This document shows positions 18,820 to 28,191 of a stretch of 40,834 bases of DNA, one piece after another; position 1 is the stretch's first letter; each line of letters opens with the position of its first letter. The position numbers and the translations under genes were made by a program. This DNA comes from Paracoccaceae bacterium. Lineage in GTDB: Bacteria; Pseudomonadota; Alphaproteobacteria; Rhodobacterales; Rhodobacteraceae. The stretch spans positions 1-40,834 of the forward strand of contig JAJFIC010000108.1 in the NCBI GenBank assembly GCA_021775315.1, read 5' to 3'. The notes under the pieces are model-generated. The model did no database searches, was not told the DNA's origin, and saw only the letters and a program-made list of their open reading frames with translations.

Positions 18820-19647
18820 CTAGCGAAACAGCAACCGAGACTCGCGTTTGCGCAATGATGGCCGTGCTGACGCATAGTTGCGCCGACCCTTGGCGTGACG
18901 CAGATCCGGGAAAAGTTCAAAAACCTCGTTGCGTTGGGCGTTGCCCAGCCCACCCATGGAATAATCGCCCGGCTGAAAGCTTTCGGTCCATGAACCGTCT
19001 GCCATGATGATCTCATGGTTCCGGAACAGCAGATGGATGTAATAAGTGCCAATGCAATCAATCTGTTGCACGCCCTTGTGGTTTACCAAATGCTTTGCGG
19101 CGACCAGCACTTCTTCTTCGGCAAACAGCAGGCTGGTGCGTTCACTTGACACCAGCATCCGGTGATTTGGTGAAACCATCATGTCGCGTTCTGGCATGTC
19201 CGGGCCAAGCGCGCCCTTGCGGATAAGGACGGGGCGCAGATGCGGCGCGTTCAGTAATTCGCGACCAGACATTGGTTTTTTGCCGATCCAGTTGATTTCC
19301 TGAGGTCCGTTGTCACGCGTGATCACCTGATCACCGGGGCGCAGATCTTGCACCGGAACGGGGCCACGGGTGGTTTCAATCAGTGTATTTGGTGTAAAGC
19401 ACATAACAACCTCATCATCATTATCTTCGCCAGAGCCATCGCCCGAACCATTGTTTTCATCATCTTGCGCGTGACTGCCGTGGTCAGAACCGGCTGAACC
19501 TGAACTTGAGCCACCCGAGCCATCAGCAACTGAACCGTCGTCATCCGAGTCTGAGGCGTAGCGACCGCCAAGGAAGACCACGTCGTCGCCGCTGTTGGCC
19601 GCGTCTGATCCATCCGTTGGTTCAGACTCATCCATGAACTGCACCAT
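18820..19647 (-). CDS. Hint-domain (Hint_2) protein with acidic Gly/Ser/Asp-rich N-terminus
   Basis: With the ATG at 19647 the protein has 275 residues. Residues 10-80 are low complexity, rich in Asp, Gly and Ser. The Hint domain starts at Cys83 (VMCFTPNTLIETTRG) and continues with VQDLRPGDQVIT, MMVSPNHRML and AKHLVNHKG. Hint_2 proteins are abundant in roseobacters and are thought to be secreted and possibly self-processed at the Cys. There is no clear signal peptide. The start is uncertain: ATG 19647, ATG 19635 or TTG 19749 are possible, none with a strong ribosome site. The gene overlaps the end of the upstream small membrane protein gene, suggesting coupling. Confidence 0.8.
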   Translation of the reverse strand: MVQFMDESEPTDGSDAANSGDDVVFLGGRYASDSDDDGSVADGSGGSSSGSAGSDHGSHAQDDENNGSGDGSGEDNDDEVVMCFTPNTLIETTRGPVPVQDLRPGDQVITRDNGPQEINWIGKKPMSGRELLNAPHLRPVLIRKGALGPDMPERDMMVSPNHRMLVSSERTSLLFAEEEVLVAAKHLVNHKGVQQIDCIGTYYIHLLFRNHEIIMADGSWTESFQPGDYSMGGLGNAQRNEVFELFPDLRHAKGRRNYASARPSLRKRESRLLFR

Positions 19648-19951
19648 CGTAATTTGGCAGGATGCGTTTTGGGCGCACGATGCCGGCCCTTGCGGTTCCG
19701 CGCAGGGCTGGATTGTTGGAAACAGTGCGTGAAGTCCGAGCCATATCAAAACGGCCGGAACGCTTGAAACGTCGGCGCATCGTCAAAAAGCCAAAGAGGC
19801 AAACAAACGCGACAATTTCGGAAACTTCGGGGCTTAGGGTCAGTTTAAAACTGGCAGCCAATACCAGAAAGAAAATCGTGAACAGACCGATAAAGCCAGA
19901 AAGACGGGATTGCAGATACTTCTGCGGGGTACGGATACTCAAAACACTCAC
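19628..19951 (-). CDS. Small two-helix membrane protein upstream of the Hint gene
   Basis: The protein has up to 107 residues, with hydrophobic segments at about 18-36 (FIGLFTIFFLVLAASF) and 44-58 (IVAFVCLFGFL), then a basic, Arg-rich C-terminal half. The start is GTG 19951 or TTG 19942; the latter has AGG 8 nt ahead. The stop overlaps the likely start of the Hint gene, so the two are probably translated together. I do not recognise the family. It could anchor or export the Hint protein, but that rests on position alone. Confidence 0.5.
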   Translation of the reverse strand: MSVLSIRTPQKYLQSRLSGFIGLFTIFFLVLAASFKLTLSPEVSEIVAFVCLFGFLTMRRRFKRSGRFDMARTSRTVSNNPALRGTARAGIVRPKRILPNYDGAVHG

Positions 19952-20559: not shown

Positions 20560-21750
20560 ATGAACACTGAACTTATTGTTGATCTCCGCTCGCCTCGTTT
20601 TGACGAAGATAAATACGGTTATATCGAAGAACTGCGGTCGCAGAGTTTCTTTGCGCGCACACCTGAAAGCGCCGTTGTTTTCTTCAACCAGGAAGACGTT
20701 GCCGAGGTGTTTCGCTGCAAAGATTTCCGGTTCACTTTTAACCTTATTGATGAAACCCGCAGCCCCTATCTGGCCAAGGCCATCCAGCATGAACTGTTGA
20801 ACATGCATGGCCCGCAACACGAGCGGCTGTCGCGTCTGCTGAAACAGGCGTTGCGCGACCGCATTATCGAAGGCATGCGTGAAAACATCACCAAAATCGT
20901 GGATGATCTGGTCACGGCATTCCCCCAGAATGGAGAGGTCGAGTTTTGTGAACACTTCGCCGATCCGCTGCCTGCAAGGGTTCTTGGCCCGATGTTTGGC
21001 GTGCCTTACGACCGGGTGCAGGGCTTTAATGAATGGATCAAAATTGGCGGGCGCAAAGTTGATGCGCTGCAATCCGGCGTCGGGATCGACGAGGTTGAAC
21101 AGGCCAATCGCAGCATCCACACTTATCTGCGCACGTTGCTGGCGGAACGGCGAGATGCCCCCGGTGACGATCTGTTCAGCGAACTAATTCAGGCCGAAAT
21201 AGACGGCGATAAGATGAGCGAGGATGAACTGGTCTATCTGTCCGGCGAATTGGCCTCTGCCGGGGTGGACACAACGCGCACCCAGCTTCCGTTAATCCTG
21301 AACGCGCTTCTGGCGTTTCCTGATCAGATGGCAAAATTGCGCGCCGATCCGGGACTGGCCCTAAGAACGGTGGACGAAGGCATGCGCTATGCGCCGCTGC
21401 CATGGGCCCTTCCCCACGCCGCGACCCGTGATTTCACCTATAAAGGCATTGCGTTCAATGAAGGCGATCTTGCTTTTGCCCTTGTCCCAGCGGCTAACCG
21501 CGACCCGGCTGCGGTCGCGGATCCGCAAAGCTTTGACATTTCACGCGACCGAACCCGCCATTTCGCCTTTGGCTATGGCCTCCACGCCTGCCCCGGCTCA
21601 CAACTCGCCCGAATGGAGATGTCCATCGCACTCGAGGCGCTAACGACCCGGTTTTCAGAGATTTCACTGGCGGCTGAACCCGACTGGGAACCGGGACTGA
21701 AAGGCCGGACACTTCGCAGTCTTCATCTAAAAGTACAGAAGTCCGGGTAG
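20560..21750 (+). CDS. Cytochrome P450
   Basis: The protein has 396 residues, typical of soluble bacterial class I P450s. The I-helix oxygen-activation motif is AGVDTT (234-239), the K-helix ExxR is EGMR (273-276), and the heme loop is FAFGYGLHACPG with axial Cys344. It should hydroxylate a small substrate with electrons from ferredoxin and its reductase, neither of which is encoded nearby. AAGG lies about 10 nt ahead of ATG 20560. The gene stands alone between oppositely oriented neighbours and ends in its own terminator. Substrate unknown. Confidence 0.95.
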   Translation: MNTELIVDLRSPRFDEDKYGYIEELRSQSFFARTPESAVVFFNQEDVAEVFRCKDFRFTFNLIDETRSPYLAKAIQHELLNMHGPQHERLSRLLKQALRDRIIEGMRENITKIVDDLVTAFPQNGEVEFCEHFADPLPARVLGPMFGVPYDRVQGFNEWIKIGGRKVDALQSGVGIDEVEQANRSIHTYLRTLLAERRDAPGDDLFSELIQAEIDGDKMSEDELVYLSGELASAGVDTTRTQLPLILNALLAFPDQMAKLRADPGLALRTVDEGMRYAPLPWALPHAATRDFTYKGIAFNEGDLAFALVPAANRDPAAVADPQSFDISRDRTRHFAFGYGLHACPGSQLARMEMSIALEALTTRFSEISLAAEPDWEPGLKGRTLRSLHLKVQKSG

Positions 21751-21878: not shown

Positions 21879-22271
21879 TCAGCCAGCATAGCTCAGCACA
21901 AGATCACGCAGCGACACAAATCCCAACAGCCCGGCGTCGCCATGCACCAGCGCCCGTCGCCTGCCAAGCTGGGTCAGCAACCGGACAGCATATTTTACGT
22001 TCATATTCGGCACAATAGTCAGGACTGGCTTTTCCATGACTTCATAGACCGAAGTGCGTTCAAATGACCGGTTCACTGCGATCACCCGCGAGGCAATCTC
22101 GTTGACCGTCAGAAAGCCGTATTCATCGCCGGGATGGCGACGGTCAATGACCAACGAGCTGATTTTGTGTTCGCGCATCATGGCCAACGCCTCGTGAATG
22201 TTGGCCAGCCCGTCGATCCGGTGCAGTTCGGTGCGCATAAGTGTATCGACCCTATCGAATGGTTCTTCCAT
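21879..22271 (-). CDS. CBS-domain pair protein of the DUF1538 operon
   Basis: The protein has 130 residues and is just two CBS motifs in tandem (about 10-65 and 72-130): IHEALAMMREHKISSLVI with GFLTVNEI, then KYAVRLLTQLGRRRALV with GFVSLRDL. CBS pairs bind adenosyl nucleotides and gate partner channels or transporters. ATG 22271 has AGGAGG 7 nt ahead and overlaps the PII-like stop by one base (TGATG); a GTG at 22274 is an alternative. As the last gene of a four-gene operon with two DUF1538 membrane proteins, it probably senses ATP/AMP or a similar ligand to control them. That role is inference. Confidence 0.88.
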   Translation of the reverse strand: MEEPFDRVDTLMRTELHRIDGLANIHEALAMMREHKISSLVIDRRHPGDEYGFLTVNEIASRVIAVNRSFERTSVYEVMEKPVLTIVPNMNVKYAVRLLTQLGRRRALVHGDAGLLGFVSLRDLVLSYAG

Positions 22272-22624
22272 CACAGGTCCTCCTTGCTGATATCCTGAAT
22301 TATGCTTTGCATTTGACCCTTCATGCCAATCGCGTCTTCGATGTCGATCTGAAAAGCAACGCCTGTTCCCGGCTTTTCCTCAAACCCACAGGCCGCGGCG
22401 ATCGTCTCCAGTATGTCTCGACTGTTATGTGCTTCGACCAGAAACAGCACCATGTCGCGCTGCCCGGCCAAGGTCAGACCCATAAACGTCTTTTGTGGCG
22501 TCAGCCCTTCACCTCGGGCGCCGGTGATAACGGTGCAACCTGTGGCCCCCTTGGATCGGGCCGCTTCGATGGCCTTGTCGGTCAATTCGTCCTGGGTCAT
22601 CACGATGAGCAGTTTAAACTTCAT
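22271..22624 (-). CDS. PII-like signalling protein of the DUF1538 operon
   Basis: The protein has 117 residues with the ferredoxin-like PII fold: [20 protein letters not shown], a glycine-rich GARGEG segment where PII proteins carry the T-loop, and a C-terminal VAFQIDIEDAIGM strand. It lacks the T-loop Tyr that GlnB/GlnK use for uridylylation, so it belongs with PII-like regulators of transporters such as SbtB. The start overlaps the DUF1538-B stop by 4 nt (ATGA) and GGAGG lies 6 nt ahead. It most likely binds a nucleotide and docks on the DUF1538 proteins; the ligand is not readable. Confidence 0.85.
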   Translation of the reverse strand: MKFKLLIVMTQDELTDKAIEAARSKGATGCTVITGARGEGLTPQKTFMGLTLAGQRDMVLFLVEAHNSRDILETIAAACGFEEKPGTGVAFQIDIEDAIGMKGQMQSIIQDISKEDL

Positions 22625-23430
22625 TCCGGGCCTCCTTCGGGGGTGGAAGTTGTGGGGTTTTTATCCTGTCGCCGTTTCGCCAACCATGCACCGATCTGGG
22701 CATAACCCATAACTGTGATGATAGGAAACAAGCTGGCAAGTGCGATCAGACCGAACCCGTCAAGCAATGCCGAGCGGCCCGGCACATTTGATGCCAATCC
22801 CAGTCCCAGCGCCGCCACCAGCGGTACGGTTACGGTTGATGTTGTCACCCCGCCAGAATCGTAAGCCAAGGGCACAATCATGCGGGGCGCAAACATAGTT
22901 TGGATCACCACGATGGCGTATCCAACGATCATATACATATATAGTGGCGTGCCGCTGACGATGCGAAACGTGCCCACCGACAGGCTTAACGCCACGCCGA
23001 TTGCAACCGCAATACGCAAGCCGTTCGCCTTTACCGCACCGCCCGAAACGTGATCCGCCTTTAGGGCCACGGCGATCAAAGAAGGCTCGGCGATGGTGGT
23101 GGCAAAACCGATAGCAAAAGCAAAAAGATAGGTCCAGTAATAGTCCCCCCAGCCAAGCACAGCATTGGGATCGCCCCCCAGAAACGCAGGGTCAGTCAGT
23201 TGTCGCGCCATCTCAGCACCCAGCGGAAACAGGGCGCGTTCCAGACCGAACAGGAAAAACGCCAACCCCACCACCACGTATAGCAACCCAAACAGCACCT
23301 CGCGAAGATGCGGGATTTTGCGCCGCAATATGCCCATCTGAAATCCCAGAAGCACTGCAACGATGGGGGCCACATCCTTAAGGATGCCGACGAACACTTG
23401 GCTAAGCTCTATGGCCATCGACCAGATCAT
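22621..23430 (-). CDS. DUF1538 membrane protein B
   Basis: The protein has 269 residues with about seven hydrophobic segments. It carries the two DUF1538 hallmarks also present in its neighbour: [11 protein letters not shown] (111-121) and [11 protein letters not shown] (189-199) followed by TVPLV. The two genes are therefore paralogues of similar length, pointing to a heterodimeric membrane complex. The ATG overlaps the upstream stop by 4 nt. I recall, without being able to verify it, that a paired DUF1538 system from Halomonas was reported as a monovalent cation/proton antiporter. The linked PII and CBS genes fit a regulated ion transporter. Confidence 0.88.
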
Positions 23431-24167
23431 GCCGCCACCACCAATCCGAACAGCAACACAAATATGATCGGCATCAGGCTGGCAAAAGCGATCAGGCCAA
23501 AGCCGTCCACCATTGGGTTGCGCCCCTTGATCACCTGCGCCAAGCCCACCCCCAGCGAGGTGACAAGCGGCACCGTGATGGTCGAAGTCGTCACGCCGCC
23601 TGAATCATAAGCAATGCCAATGATCTCGCGTGGCGCAATCGGGGTCAGTGCGACGACCACAACATAGCCGCCAATGATCAGCCAGTGGATTGGCCAGCCC
23701 TTAAGGATGCGAAACACGCCGATAACCAGCGAGGTTCCGACCGACGCCGCCACCGTATAACGCAGCGCGTCGGCATAGGTTTTCTGACTGGCCGGATCAC
23801 TTTCAATAACCCCGGCAGCGGCCATCACGCGCGTGGCCTCTTCGCCCACCGCGATCAACGCAGGCTCTGCCACGGTGGTGCCAAACCCCAACCCGAACGA
23901 GAAAATCAGCAGAACAGGCAGCGACCCGCGCGAGGCCAGTGCATTGGCCAGCGTCTCGCCCAACGGAAACAACGCCATTTCCAGCCCACGGATGAACAGC
24001 GCCAGCCCCAGCAACACGAAACCAAAGCCGATTGCCAGTTCAGTGATATTCTCAAATGGTTGACGCAGAACCACGATTTGGAAGAACGCCACGATGATCA
24101 GAATCGGCGCAAGATCCCGGGCGGTTCCGCTCATCTGGTTGTATAGCGCGCGCGTTGTGCCCGTCAT
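23427..24167 (-). CDS. DUF1538 membrane protein A
   Basis: The protein has 246 residues and is polytopic. It carries [11 protein letters not shown] (97-107) and [11 protein letters not shown] (186-196) followed by ITVPLV. The small, polar, semi-buried motifs suggest ion or substrate coordination within the membrane. ATG 24167 is chosen because GGGAAAG lies 4 nt ahead; a TTG at 24206 would add 13 residues without support. It is the first gene of the four-gene row A-B-PII-CBS, all joined by 1- or 4-nt overlaps. An SDR gene lies upstream on the same strand after 164 nt, probably a separate unit. Confidence 0.88.
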
Positions 24168-26216: not shown

Positions 26217-26759
26217 TCACGCGGTTGAATCCAACGCTGTCAGGCCAAGGATATTGTCGATGTCGGCCACCACCTGCGTCGCCAACCCACCTTCAAATTC
26301 AATCCATTCGCGCTGGTATTCAGAGCGGTAAGCGATAATGACCTGCACCCCAAGGGTCAGCGCCTTTTCTATCGCGCCGCGAAAGCCCCTGCCCTCGCTT
26401 TCGGCCTGCCCAAAGCGGTTGATGATCAGGGTGTCGGTCGCCGCACTCAGGTTTTGTTCGATCTGTTGTGCCAATGCCACCAACGCCTGACGATCCAGAT
26501 GACAGCCTTGTGCCTCTGGCCCGCGGCTTTCGGAAATCGGATGCATGACGCCGGTCGACAGATCCTCAAGGCACATCATGCGGCAATCGCAATCGCTGCT
26601 GCCATCGCCGCGAATTTGCAGCAGGCCAGCCACGCTGCGGCCTTGGCTGCGCAGGCCTTCAGCCACTTTGCGCAGAATTTCATCAATCTCTGCGCCACGT
26701 TCAAAATTCACGCCAATCAGGGCGTGTCGGTTTTGCACGTCGTCAATTAAATCTTTCAT
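26217..26759 (-). CDS. DUF2478 protein linked to molybdenum metabolism
   Basis: The protein has 180 residues. A cysteine group CDCRMMC lies at about 57-63, and TLIINRFGQAESEGRGFRGAIEKAL (about 119-143) is the conserved DUF2478 core, which resembles a P-loop-like NTPase fold without a Walker A motif. DUF2478 genes commonly lie beside molybdate transport or molybdoenzyme genes; here moeA lies 17 nt upstream on the same strand. ATG 26759 has GGAG 7 nt ahead; an in-frame extension to 26810 would overlap moeA. A role in handling molybdenum or its cofactor is inferred from position and family. Confidence 0.82.
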   Translation of the reverse strand: MKDLIDDVQNRHALIGVNFERGAEIDEILRKVAEGLRSQGRSVAGLLQIRGDGSSDCDCRMMCLEDLSTGVMHPISESRGPEAQGCHLDRQALVALAQQIEQNLSAATDTLIINRFGQAESEGRGFRGAIEKALTLGVQVIIAYRSEYQREWIEFEGGLATQVVADIDNILGLTALDSTA

Positions 26760-26776
26760 CTCTTGCTCCAAAACCT

Positions 26777-28036
26777 TCACAGGGCAAAGCCTGCCCCAAA
26801 TCCAAACCAATCCAGCCGATCGCCAGCGGTGACCTTGTCGACATCGCGATCCAACCGCGCCAGACCGTCAGCCGAGATCAGAGGCTGTAACAGGGCTGAT
26901 CCGCCCTGCCCCAATCGCTGCAAAACTGGCTGGCCGTCAGCCGTCAGCCCGGTAATTTTCGCTGGAAAATATTCCACCCGTCCCGGTTTGCGCATCCAGT
27001 CAAACGCCGCTATTCCCGTGGCGGGCCGCAACGAGGTGGGCACGCGCCCGGACAACGCATCAAGACAGGGCCGCACCAGCAGCGTGAACGAAACAAGCGC
27101 TGCAACCGGATTGCCCGGCAGGCCAACAAACAAGGCTTGGCCCAACTGGCCAAACACCACAGGTTTGCCCGGCTTTACGGCCATGCGGATCTGTTCAGGC
27201 GCGCCACCAGCCTGACCAAGCGCTGCGAAAACATGATCTTCTTCGCCGACAGATACGCCGCCGGTGCTCAGGATCAGATCCGCCTCTTGCGCGGCTTTTT
27301 TAAGCGCCGCCGCGATGGCATCGCAATTGTCCGGCAGGATGCCATAATCCAGAACCTGAATGGTGGGGCCTGACAACAAGGCGCGCAGCATCCAGCGGTT
27401 GCTGTCGTGGATTGCCGCCGCACCCAGCGGAGTATCAGGGTCACACAGCTCTTTCCCTGACGAAAAGATCGCAAGCCGAAGCGGGGTTAGTGCGGGGATT
27501 TTGGACTGGCCGGTGGCGGCAAGGATGGCGATGTGGCGCGGGTCAAGCACGCTGCCCGCACGGATAAGCAAATCACCAGCGGCGAAATCTTCACCAGCGC
27601 GGCGGATATTCTGCCCCTTGGCTGTCGTGGTGTGAAACTTCACCTGATCGCCAACGCGCATCGCGTCTTCCTGCATGGCCACGCCAAACGTGCCTTTGGG
27701 AATGGGCGCACCGGTGAAAATCCGGGCGGCCTGGCCTGTGCAGAGCGGTTGATCCTTGGCGCTTTCCCCCGCCGCGATCCGGGCCTGAATGTCATAGCGT
27801 TCAGAAGGTCCTGCTGGCCCCAAAGCATAACCATCAACGGCGGAATTATCGCGCGGCGGCATCGACATTGCAGCGTGGATATCTGCGCCCAGTGTGACGC
27901 CCAAAGCATCCGCTAGCGGCACCGACAGGCTTGCCCCTGTTGGCCGCACCAAGGACAACAACCGGGCGCGGACATCGTCATAGGGCAGCAAATCACCGGA
28001 ATGGCGGTCACAACAGCCGGAAACCACGTCTTTCAT
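26777..28036 (-). CDS. moeA: Molybdopterin molybdenumtransferase MoeA-like
   Basis: The protein has 419 residues. PPRDNSAVDGYAL (60-72) is the MoeA signature; LSTGGVSVGEEDHV and GKPVVFGQLG, then GLPGNPVA, mark the MoCF-fold domain. It inserts molybdate (or tungstate) into adenylylated molybdopterin. An unusual N-terminus holds CCDRH before the conserved start. ATG 28036 overlaps the stop of a 52-codon frame by 4 nt (ATGA); an in-frame GTG/TTG extension to 28105 has less support. DUF2478 follows after 17 nt. With the AOR/MocA pair at 16.3-18.7 kb it may serve the same enzyme type. Confidence 0.93.
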   Translation of the reverse strand: MKDVVSGCCDRHSGDLLPYDDVRARLLSLVRPTGASLSVPLADALGVTLGADIHAAMSMPPRDNSAVDGYALGPAGPSERYDIQARIAAGESAKDQPLCTGQAARIFTGAPIPKGTFGVAMQEDAMRVGDQVKFHTTTAKGQNIRRAGEDFAAGDLLIRAGSVLDPRHIAILAATGQSKIPALTPLRLAIFSSGKELCDPDTPLGAAAIHDSNRWMLRALLSGPTIQVLDYGILPDNCDAIAAALKKAAQEADLILSTGGVSVGEEDHVFAALGQAGGAPEQIRMAVKPGKPVVFGQLGQALFVGLPGNPVAALVSFTLLVRPCLDALSGRVPTSLRPATGIAAFDWMRKPGRVEYFPAKITGLTADGQPVLQRLGQGGSALLQPLISADGLARLDRDVDKVTAGDRLDWFGFGAGFAL

Positions 28037-28191
28037 TCCACCGTTCTTTCGTTCTGGGTTTCGCGTCGCACTGTACCGCAATGCCGCAAGCGGATGATCC
28101 GGCACAGCAACAGCAAACTCAGCGTCTTGTCTAAGGCCCGCATGGCATCAAGCGGAATGACCCAGATCAAGTTGGCGACGGGATCTCGCAC
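28033..28191 (-). CDS. Small hydrophobic protein overlapping moeA start
   Basis: A 52-codon frame starts at GTG 28191 with AAGGA 8 nt ahead and ends at 28033, its TGA overlapping the moeA ATG (ATGA). The peptide begins MRDPVANLIWVIPLDAMRAL, has a leucine-rich stretch (about 26-36) and a basic tail. The ribosome site and exact 4-nt coupling argue that it is translated. The family is not recognised. Confidence 0.45.
   Translation of the reverse strand: MRDPVANLIWVIPLDAMRALDKTLSLLLLCRIIRLRHCGTVRRETQNERTVE

What the first reader, a model, noticed from the sequence alone, without database searches (positions are those of the whole stretch)
21879..24167. Four-gene overlapping operon: two DUF1538 membrane paralogues with a PII-like and a CBS-pair regulator
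Seen: DUF1538-A, DUF1538-B, PII-like and CBS genes run on one strand with overlaps of 4, 4 and 1 nt. A and B share TT(V/I)AEP(A/S)LIAV and [11 protein letters not shown], so they are duplicated halves of a likely heterodimer. Known: PII-like proteins and CBS pairs bind adenine nucleotides and gate transporters. Inferred: a membrane ion or solute transporter under dual nucleotide control, one sensor perhaps reading second messengers and the other energy charge. I recall an unverified report of a DUF1538 pair acting as a cation/proton antiporter; the PII plus CBS arrangement looks undescribed to me.
Basis: partly seen in the sequence, partly recalled or inferred. Interest (0 to 1): 0.75.

Follow-up and report, generated by a model that had tools for sequence, protein, structure and literature searches.

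The report
Ion antiporter operon with two sensors
Four tightly packed genes encode a two-part membrane salt/proton exchanger together with two small sensor proteins that probably switch it on and off; the exchanger type is known, but its regular pairing with these sensors seems not to have been described.

Summary
The operon is real. On the minus strand lie UmpA-like (23427-24167), UmpB-like (22621-23430), PII-like (22271-22624) and CBS-pair (21879-22271) genes, overlapping by 4, 4 and 1 nt. The membrane proteins are DUF1538 paralogues, 45% identical, related to (but below NCBI's equivalog cut-offs for) UmpAB, a published heterodimeric Na+(Li+,K+)/H+ antiporter of Halomonas. That paper's main text mentions neither PII nor CBS.

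The sensor genes are no accident: PII and CBS follow UmpB in 78 of the 80 best relatives, while the window's own flanking genes appear in 0-3 of 80. PII is linked to DUF1538 in 117 of 126 DUF1538-bearing genomes among 398 of the phylum, and beside fused DUF1538 in Clostridia. CBS is a variable partner: separate UmpA/UmpB genes mostly carry PII+CBS, fused DUF1538 mostly two PII genes or domains.

The PII-like protein lacks the canonical ATP-contacting Lys/Arg and uridylylated Tyr (numbering recalled), so its ligand is open. One CBS repeat keeps the nucleotide motif. UmpB's confident model has no significant PDB match.

Best reading: a cation/H+ antiporter gated from the cytoplasm by a PII-like lid plus a second sensor. 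Regulation is inferred, not shown. New variant of a known kind (PII-gated transporters).

The parts
23427..24167 (-). umpA-like gene, DUF1538 membrane subunit A (246 aa)
   Evidence: PF07556 224 bits and best NCBIfam model NF041627 UmpA 346.6 bits, under its cut-off of 490, both run on the longer TTG frame; start chosen by comparison with relatives
22621..23430 (-). umpB-like gene, DUF1538 membrane subunit B (269 aa), overlaps umpA-like by 4 nt
   Evidence: PF07556 223 bits; NF041628 UmpB 328.9 bits, cut-off 500; AlphaFold2 mean pLDDT 92.8
22271..22624 (-). PII-like regulator gene (117 aa), overlaps umpB-like by 4 nt
   Evidence: PF00543 35.2 bits, cut-off 25; model pLDDT 84.5 with PII, SbtB and CPII structures among the best PDB matches
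21879..22271 (-). CBS-pair protein gene (130 aa from the ATG), overlaps the PII-like gene by 1 nt
   Evidence: PF00571 54.4 bits, two stretches; closest solved sequence CBS-CP12 5nmu, E 3.5e-17

Best explanation
The operon encodes a UmpAB-type monovalent cation/proton antiporter made of two homologous DUF1538 membrane subunits (A and B), together with its own cytoplasmic control unit. Most likely the PII-like protein forms a trimer that docks by its short T-loop on the cytoplasmic face of UmpAB and closes it, as GlnK does on AmtB and SbtB on SbtA (recalled). The CBS pair is the second sensor: it binds an adenine nucleotide, probably AMP/ATP, and sets whether the lid sits or lifts, so that H+-consuming cation exchange stops when energy or ion balance is wrong. 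Shown here: gene content, gene overlap, wide conservation of the PII partner, and the CBS/second-PII alternation. Shown by others for the Halomonas relative: antiport and heterodimer. Inferred: that window UmpAB moves the same ions, that PII and CBS act on it directly, the trimer lid, the ligands and the direction of control.
For: DUF1538 identity and UmpA/UmpB assignment; UmpAB of Halomonas zhaodongensis is a Na+(Li+,K+)/H+ antiporter and heterodimer (PMC5484666). PII and CBS behind UmpB in 78 of 80 UmpB relatives; PII and CBS genes overlap by 1 or 4 nt in 73 of 78; the window's flanking genes in 0-3 of 80. Same-strand PII linked to DUF1538 in 117 of 126 DUF1538-bearing genomes of the window's phylum (30 of 30, 27 of 30, 60 of 66), in all 8 DUF1538-bearing genomes of 246 searched from the phylum of G400 (G400 itself may be misbinned), in 20 of 20 inspected of 48 DUF1538-bearing genomes of a further phylum, and in 5 of 5 plasmid records examined of 7 hits, 4 of the 5 Clostridia. 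PII fold confirmed. CBS repeat 2 motif: S/T in 33 of 34, D/E in 30 of 34.
Against: No interaction, ligand or flux datum for the sensors. The window pair is under the UmpA/UmpB equivalog cut-offs. Canonical nucleotide-contact positions are missing in the PII-like protein. PII-likes of the same subfamily also occur away from DUF1538, beside other genes, and five genomes have a strong one without any DUF1538, so they may have other targets. In G084, G093 and G116 the PII-like gene is not beside DUF1538 but elsewhere; L056 and L124 lack a linked PII; in L172, L259 and L260 the PII is upstream on the other strand. No DUF1538-PII or DUF1538-CBS fusion was found. umpAB alone gave antiport in E. coli, so these sensors are not needed for basal activity (PMC5484666).
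Confidence: 0.66

Rival explanations
1. The transporter moves another solute (not Na+/K+); PII and CBS regulate that transport. The Halomonas antiport would then be a property of that clade or a side activity.
For: Window proteins are below the UmpA/UmpB equivalog cut-offs. UmpA shows a weak Na_Pi_cotrans match (E 0.014, below cut-off). UmpB's model has no significant PDB match, so the fold gives no substrate clue. PII proteins otherwise often gate nutrient uptake (established knowledge).
Against: The charged positions that the paper counts as shared by UmpA and UmpB homologues (3 R, 2 D, 1 E) have likely counterparts among the invariant columns of A3, which include R139, R156, R219, D19, D191, D224 and E115. 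The only family member whose characterisation I found is an antiporter.
Confidence: 0.2
2. The sensors do not gate the transporter directly. They share an operon only for co-expression and act on something else, for example metabolic enzymes or transcription.
For: Lone PII-likes sit beside ntrB/ntrC-like genes or a flavoprotein dehydrogenase-like gene in some genomes (named by eye); PII away from DUF1538 in G084, G093 and G116.
Against: Near-constant linkage in several phyla, in both split and fused transporter forms, with an immediate downstream position, frequent overlap, and unshared flanks.
Confidence: 0.12
3. The PII-like protein is a metal or ion sensor (CutA/PII-NG-like) rather than a nucleotide sensor, reading the transported cation or a metal directly; CBS is the only nucleotide sensor.
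For: Canonical ATP-contact positions replaced (V/I in 33 of 34 at the Lys position). PII-NG proteins sit beside a CzcABC proton/metal antiporter and one is proposed as a metal sensor (PMC7726332, passages only).
Against: No Cys is conserved and H66 is the only His in the conserved columns. The GxG of the B-loop is kept. Foldseek's best matches include SbtB and CPII structures solved with ATP, ADP or AMP.
Confidence: 0.15

Closest known systems
UmpAB of Halomonas zhaodongensis (DUF1538; PMC5484666)
   Same: Two overlapping genes for homologous multi-helix DUF1538 proteins; shared conserved charged residues; likely heterodimer and antiporter.
   Different: Window proteins score 346.6 and 328.9 bits against equivalog cut-offs of 490 and 500. 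The paper's main text has no mention of PII or CBS; the cloned 4.2-kb fragment carried four ORFs, of which ORF4, umpB, is the last named.
GlnK-AmtB (lid mechanism recalled; a PII beside an AmtB-like gene, recognised by me, is in the window's own genome)
   Same: PII protein co-encoded with its membrane transporter; cytoplasmic lid model.
   Different: Transporter is DUF1538; the PII-like protein is 20% identical to the genome's GlnB-type PII, T-loop about 5 residues shorter, no uridylylation Tyr, no canonical K90/R101/R103 (numbers recalled).
SbtB-SbtA and CPII (PII-like proteins tied to bicarbonate transport; recalled; structures among the best matches)
   Same: PII-like fold lacking canonical features, tied to an ion transporter.
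   Different: No C-terminal Cys pair of the SbtB R-loop in the window protein; transporter is DUF1538; a CBS or second PII sensor is added.
PII-NG beside CzcABC (PMC7726332, citing Sant'Anna 2009; passages)
   Same: Non-canonical PII clustered with a proton/cation antiporter.
   Different: CzcABC is a heavy-metal efflux system, not DUF1538. Phylogenetic placement against PII-NG not tested.

Membership tests
DUF1538 (PF07556) | Pfam domain over curated cut-off | tested here: met
   224 and 223 bits against 22.6
UmpAB antiporter, equivalog (NF041627/NF041628) | Score over the NCBI equivalog cut-off | tested here: not met
   346.6 (<490) and 328.9 (<500), although each is the best model for its subunit
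UmpAB antiporter | Na+(Li+,K+)/H+ antiport needing both subunits | not testable with these tools
   Reported for the Halomonas pair
UmpAB antiporter | Two overlapping homologous genes; conserved charged residues | tested here: met
   4-nt overlap, 45% identity, invariant R/D/E columns in 94 A and B sequences
PII superfamily (PF00543) | Pfam cut-off and ferredoxin-like PII fold | tested here: met
   35.2 bits against 25; AF2 model matches PII, SbtB and CPII structures, 246 matches at E<=0.001
Canonical GlnB/GlnK | T-loop Tyr51 and the ATP/2-oxoglutarate residues K58, K90, R101, R103 (numbering recalled) | tested here: not met
   Alignment with the genome's own two canonical PIIs; V/I at the K90 position in 33 of 34
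SbtB | C-terminal redox R-loop with disulfide (PMC10991534, abstract start) | tested here: not met
   No Cys after residue 79 in the 117-aa window protein
PII-NG | Membership of the PII-NG clade; neighbourhood of CzcABC | not tested
   No PII-NG reference was placed in a tree; the ten window proteins scanned around it include no RND/Czc protein
CBS-pair sensor (PF00571) | Two CBS repeats | tested here: met
   54.4 bits, 2 stretches
Adenine-nucleotide-binding CBS pair | G-x-x-[S/T]-x-x-[D/E] ribose motif (recalled) | tested here: inconclusive
   Repeat 2: S/T in 33 of 34 and D/E in 30 of 34. Repeat 1: S/T in 17 of 34

The most novel reading that the evidence does not exclude
DUF1538 antiporters are a multi-phylum class of transporters with a built-in two-sensor control head: a non-canonical PII, plus a second slot filled either by a CBS pair (mostly with separate UmpA/UmpB genes) or by a second PII domain (mostly with fused UmpAB). 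The PII has lost canonical ATP/2-oxoglutarate chemistry and reads a different signal, and the transporter fold has no solved relative. This would be the general form of DUF1538 function, with the bare UmpAB known from the literature being only its membrane part.
Probability: 0.45. Interest if true: 0.78.

Novelty: new variant of a known kind. Interest (0 to 1): 0.62.

Why it matters
Monovalent cation/H+ antiporters set cytoplasmic pH and salt tolerance. A family so far described as two membrane subunits appears usually to come with dedicated sensors, which would mean that its characterised activity is the unregulated state. It would extend PII gating from ammonium and bicarbonate uptake to Na+/K+ homeostasis, offers a clean system (four small genes, an E. 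coli complementation assay already in use) to find what a PII lacking canonical ligand residues senses, and supplies a target with no significant fold match in the PDB.

Tried and rejected
Chance or local co-orientation: rejected by 78 of 80 conservation against 0-3 of 80 for window flanks. In an all-against-all of flank frames in the 55 longest loci, the three most recurrent (36, 22 and 10 loci) are antisense frames over the operon itself; the next, in 9 loci, is a possible real neighbour.

CBS as an obligatory partner: rejected; in wide stretches the UmpA-UmpB-PII operons of L234-L240 (7 of 7) and L191 show no CBS.

Canonical GlnB/GlnK: rejected by residues and by two separate canonical PIIs in the same genome.

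Internal repeat in DUF1538 by profile comparison of its halves: no support (probability 1.3). Fold relationship of UmpB: Foldseek has no match at E<=0.001, best E 0.62; TM at most 0.23 (by query) or 0.26 (by target) in the 50 rows shown. Half of a heterodimer may be missed.

Direct check in Halomonas: no genome reached NF041627's cut-off in 194, 22 and 116 genomes searched (sets overlap; best 444 bits), so the gene behind umpB of Halomonas zhaodongensis stays unchecked. Of 27 further loci, 26 have a PII and 24 a CBS; L261 has neither, L259 and L260 have only an upstream PII on the other strand; the 18 new loci (L263-L280) all have both.

DUF1538-sensor fusions: none among the ORFs scanned. Promoter/terminator scan: no promoter-like site, one terminator-like site against 3.3 in shuffles. 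Single-protein phmmer against PDB: no hit for PII or UmpB; the PII profile finds three PII chains weakly.

Caveats on counts: PII and CBS profiles were iterated from the window proteins and fetched loci; they missed one Pfam-confirmed PII (Methylocystis), so counts are lower bounds. Genome-search loci were the best-scoring places unless said otherwise. Genomes may appear in more than one collection; one search holds at least six places twice (L031, L036, L037, L045, L049, L056 with L117, L115, L114, L164, L116, L118). L036, titled Pirellulaceae, has PII and CBS proteins identical to those of L035 (Anderseniella), so G400 may hold a misbinned contig. Genomes are related; counts are not independent events.
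Full report
WHAT IS THERE. On the minus strand, four genes follow each other: UmpA-like 23427-24167, UmpB-like 22621-23430, PII-like 22271-22624, CBS pair 21879-22271. Overlaps are 4, 4 and 1 nt. A longer TTG frame for UmpA (to 24206) exists; the 246-aa ATG form is also the form called in 14 of 70 relatives, and 246 aa is the commonest length overall (17 of 70). Pfam scores: DUF1538 224 and 223 bits (cut-off 22.6), P-II 35.2 (25), CBS 54.4 (24) (UmpA scanned as the longer frame). NCBIfam names UmpA (346.6 bits) and UmpB (328.9 bits) as best models for the first and second protein, but below the equivalog cut-offs of 490 and 500. The genome has only these two DUF1538 matches and two other, canonical PII genes at 109 and 102 bits; this PII scores 34.6. 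The neighbours of those two look like glutamine synthetase and AmtB (recognised by me from the translations). None of the 14 well-known control genomes has DUF1538.

WHAT IS KNOWN OF THE TRANSPORTER. PMC5484666 (abstract, the sections on cloning, phylogeny and discussion, and a term search) reports UmpAB of Halomonas zhaodongensis: two overlapping DUF1538 genes, heterodimer by co-immunoprecipitation, Na+(Li+,K+)/H+ antiport with optimum pH 9.0. The main text has 0 hits for PII, P-II and CBS. The clone carried four ORFs, ORF4 (umpB) being the last named.

CONSERVATION, NEAR. The best 80 UmpB relatives in genome contigs (of 360 confirmed; 61-88% identity) were scanned with profiles built from the window genes: 78 of 80 have PII and CBS behind UmpB. 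L021 ends at the contig edge; L056 lacks both, also in a wider stretch (L242). In L063 the CBS frame is split and UmpA too. PII and CBS genes overlap by 1 or 4 nt in 73 of 78; UmpA and UmpB overlap by 1, 4 or 13 nt in 59 of 70 measurable loci. Six window flanking genes (Hint, P450, NAD-binding, peroxiredoxin, DUF2478, MoeA) are found in only 0-3 of 80 loci. The conserved unit is these four genes.

CONSERVATION, WIDE. In 398 genomes drawn from the window's phylum, 126 carry DUF1538. A same-strand downstream PII is linked in 117 of 126: 30 of 30 loci, 27 of 30 (L130 only a weak 22-bit piece; L125 and L133 cut by contig ends), and 60 of 66 by coordinates. The nine exceptions: L124/G245 (no PII), L137/G120 and L147/G236 (contig ends), G084, G093 and G116 (PII-like elsewhere in the genome; stretches L248, L246, L247 show none next door), and G156, G218 and G272 (only DUF1538 fragments matched). 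Conversely, 13 of the 134 genomes with a PII-profile match have no DUF1538: eight weak ones (E 5.5e-4 to 1.1e-7, probably canonical PII) and five strong ones (84 bits or more: G022, G117, G129, G145, G181; confirmed without DUF1538). In the phylum of G398/G399 (77 genomes, 48 with DUF1538) I inspected the best place in 20 of the 48: all 20 have PII and CBS, two of them (L196, L213) fully seen only in wider stretches L241 and L245; in L245 an extra gene lies between UmpB and PII. Second, fused DUF1538 genes in that phylum were not inspected. In the phylum of G400, 8 of 246 genomes have DUF1538 and all 8 have PII next to it, but G400's own contig may be misbinned. In 30 loci from the order of G402 (of 44 genomes with a match among 194), 28 have a downstream PII, L172 an upstream one on the other strand, and L168 is cut by the contig end. 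Of 27 loci from two families, 26 have a PII, two of them (L259, L260) upstream on the other strand, and L261 none. Of seven plasmid records with a DUF1538 match I examined five; all five have a P-II gene behind DUF1538 (by annotation; L182 by profile), four of them Clostridia. Annotators already call these 'P-II family nitrogen regulator'.

THE SECOND SLOT. In one table of 228 loci (at least six places are in it twice), a same-strand downstream PII lies in 216. The other 12: L021, L137, L147 and L168 at contig ends; L172, L259 and L260 with PII upstream on the other strand; L213 with PII further on; L056 and its duplicate L118, L124 and L261 without. Where UmpA and UmpB are separate genes (192 loci), 183 have PII: with CBS in 173, with a second PII in 1, alone in 9. 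Of those nine, wide stretches show a CBS after all in L196 (L241) and none in the other eight (L191, L234-L240). Where DUF1538 is fused (32 loci), 30 have PII: with a second PII in 23, with CBS in 3, alone in 4 (three of them with under 750 nt left). In Clostridia and some others the two PII domains are one protein of 217-253 aa (some lengths are stop-to-stop); the first domain is weak (11-36 bits), and Pfam saw two stretches in one of the three proteins I gave it (L181). L194 and L249 are compound operons with a pair and a fused transporter, two or three PII genes and one or two CBS genes. So PII is the constant partner, and a second sensor domain of either kind is usual. Relatedness means these counts are not independent.

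THE PII-LIKE PROTEIN. The AlphaFold2 model (34-row alignment, pLDDT 84.5) has the PII fold; the best PDB matches include PII-like TTHA0516, SbtB, archaeal GlnK and CPII at 15-22% identity and TM about 0.54-0.62 by query. Aligned with the genome's own two canonical PIIs it has a T-loop about five residues shorter and lacks the uridylylated Tyr and the basic residues I recall as K58, K90, R101 and R103; the K90 position is V/I in 33 of 34. Its own invariant columns include R37-G38-E39-G40, G86-x-G88, E96-D97, G100 and Q104. It should not be assumed to read ATP/2-oxoglutarate.

THE CBS PROTEIN. Two CBS repeats; nearest solved sequence is CBS-CP12. Repeat 2 keeps S/T in 33 of 34 and D/E in 30 of 34 at the motif positions; repeat 1 keeps S/T in 17 of 34. 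One nucleotide site is plausible, two are not general.

THE MEMBRANE PROTEIN. UmpB modelled with 94 A and B sequences: pLDDT 92.8; helix breaks at A114-E115 (motif TTIAEP) and at 196-200 (just after AYDSGGV), in or beside the two motifs that are largely invariant across A and B. Foldseek against the PDB gives no significant match (best E 0.62). E115 and D191 near the breaks are where I would place the ion site (inference). The fold is either new to the PDB or hidden because one half of a heterodimer was searched.

MECHANISM. See best explanation. A PII gene directly behind its transporter is the arrangement of GlnK-AmtB and SbtB-SbtA, where PII trimers cap the transporter (recalled). PII-NG beside CzcABC is the nearest precedent I found of a PII with a proton/cation antiporter (PMC7726332, passages). 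Direct gating is likely but unproved.

LITERATURE. Searches of the held library: DUF1538 (5 papers), UmpAB (7), DUF1538+PII (1, whose 'pii' is a motif string), PII-like+CBS domain+transporter+genomic context (0), PII-like+antiporter+SbtB (7), PII-like protein+antiporter (12), PII superfamily (35, 30 listed), P-II family nitrogen regulator+antiporter (2), PII-NG (1). The DUF1538 and UmpAB lists hold eight different papers; all eight were term-searched for PII and CBS in the main text and none has a passage on PII or CBS with DUF1538. The other papers were seen only as listings, except PMC6790972 (term search, nothing on DUF1538) and PMC7726332. Most subscription papers and preprints are not held and supplements were not searched, so 'undescribed' is limited to these searches.

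VERDICT. A real, compact, widely conserved module. Transporter family known; its regular PII partner and alternating second sensor appear unreported in what I could search. New variant of a known kind.

Noticed in passing
L250:888-2027 (-) and L251:1899-3161 (-): Behind fused DUF1538 genes (623 and 652 aa) lie 379- and 420-aa proteins with two or three weak PII-like stretches in one chain (32/25/0.4 and 56/15/14 bits; Pfam confirms one stretch in L251 and none in L250): possibly a covalent PII multimer.
   Followed up: partly
L187:4275-4607 (-), L186:3900-4274 (-), L188:103-450 (+), L195:3653-4087 (+): PII-likes of the same subfamily away from DUF1538: beside a flavoprotein-dehydrogenase-like gene in some genomes, beside dus-, ntrB- and ntrC-like genes in others (gene names by eye).
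   Followed up: partly
L194:1496-5687 (-), L249:2642-7603 (+): Compound operons holding a split UmpA/UmpB pair and a fused DUF1538 gene together, with two or three PII and one or two CBS genes.
   Followed up: partly
window 22621-23430: UmpB model is confident (pLDDT 92.8) yet has no significant PDB match; helices break at or beside the two most conserved motifs.
   Followed up: partly
window 21879-24167: The operon looks patchy near home: one other same-family genome (G235) has DUF1538, while at least 20 same-family genomes, one of them of the same genus (G232), are listed without it (that list is cut short). Loss or horizontal transfer is possible.
   Followed up: no
L036:329-2650 (+): Contig titled Pirellulaceae (Planctomycetes) carries PII and CBS proteins identical to those of an Anderseniella MAG (L035): a misbinned contig or a recent transfer.
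   Followed up: partly
window 18820-19749 (-): Protein with a Hint_2 domain (PF13403, 192 bits).
   Followed up: no
window 20560-21750 (+): Cytochrome P450 gene convergent with the operon; best NCBIfam model is a cyclodipeptide-synthase-associated P450 subfamily, below cut-off.
   Followed up: no
window 26217-26810 (-): DUF2478 protein gene overlapping the end of a MoeA gene (26777-28105), a molybdenum-cofactor context.
   Followed up: no
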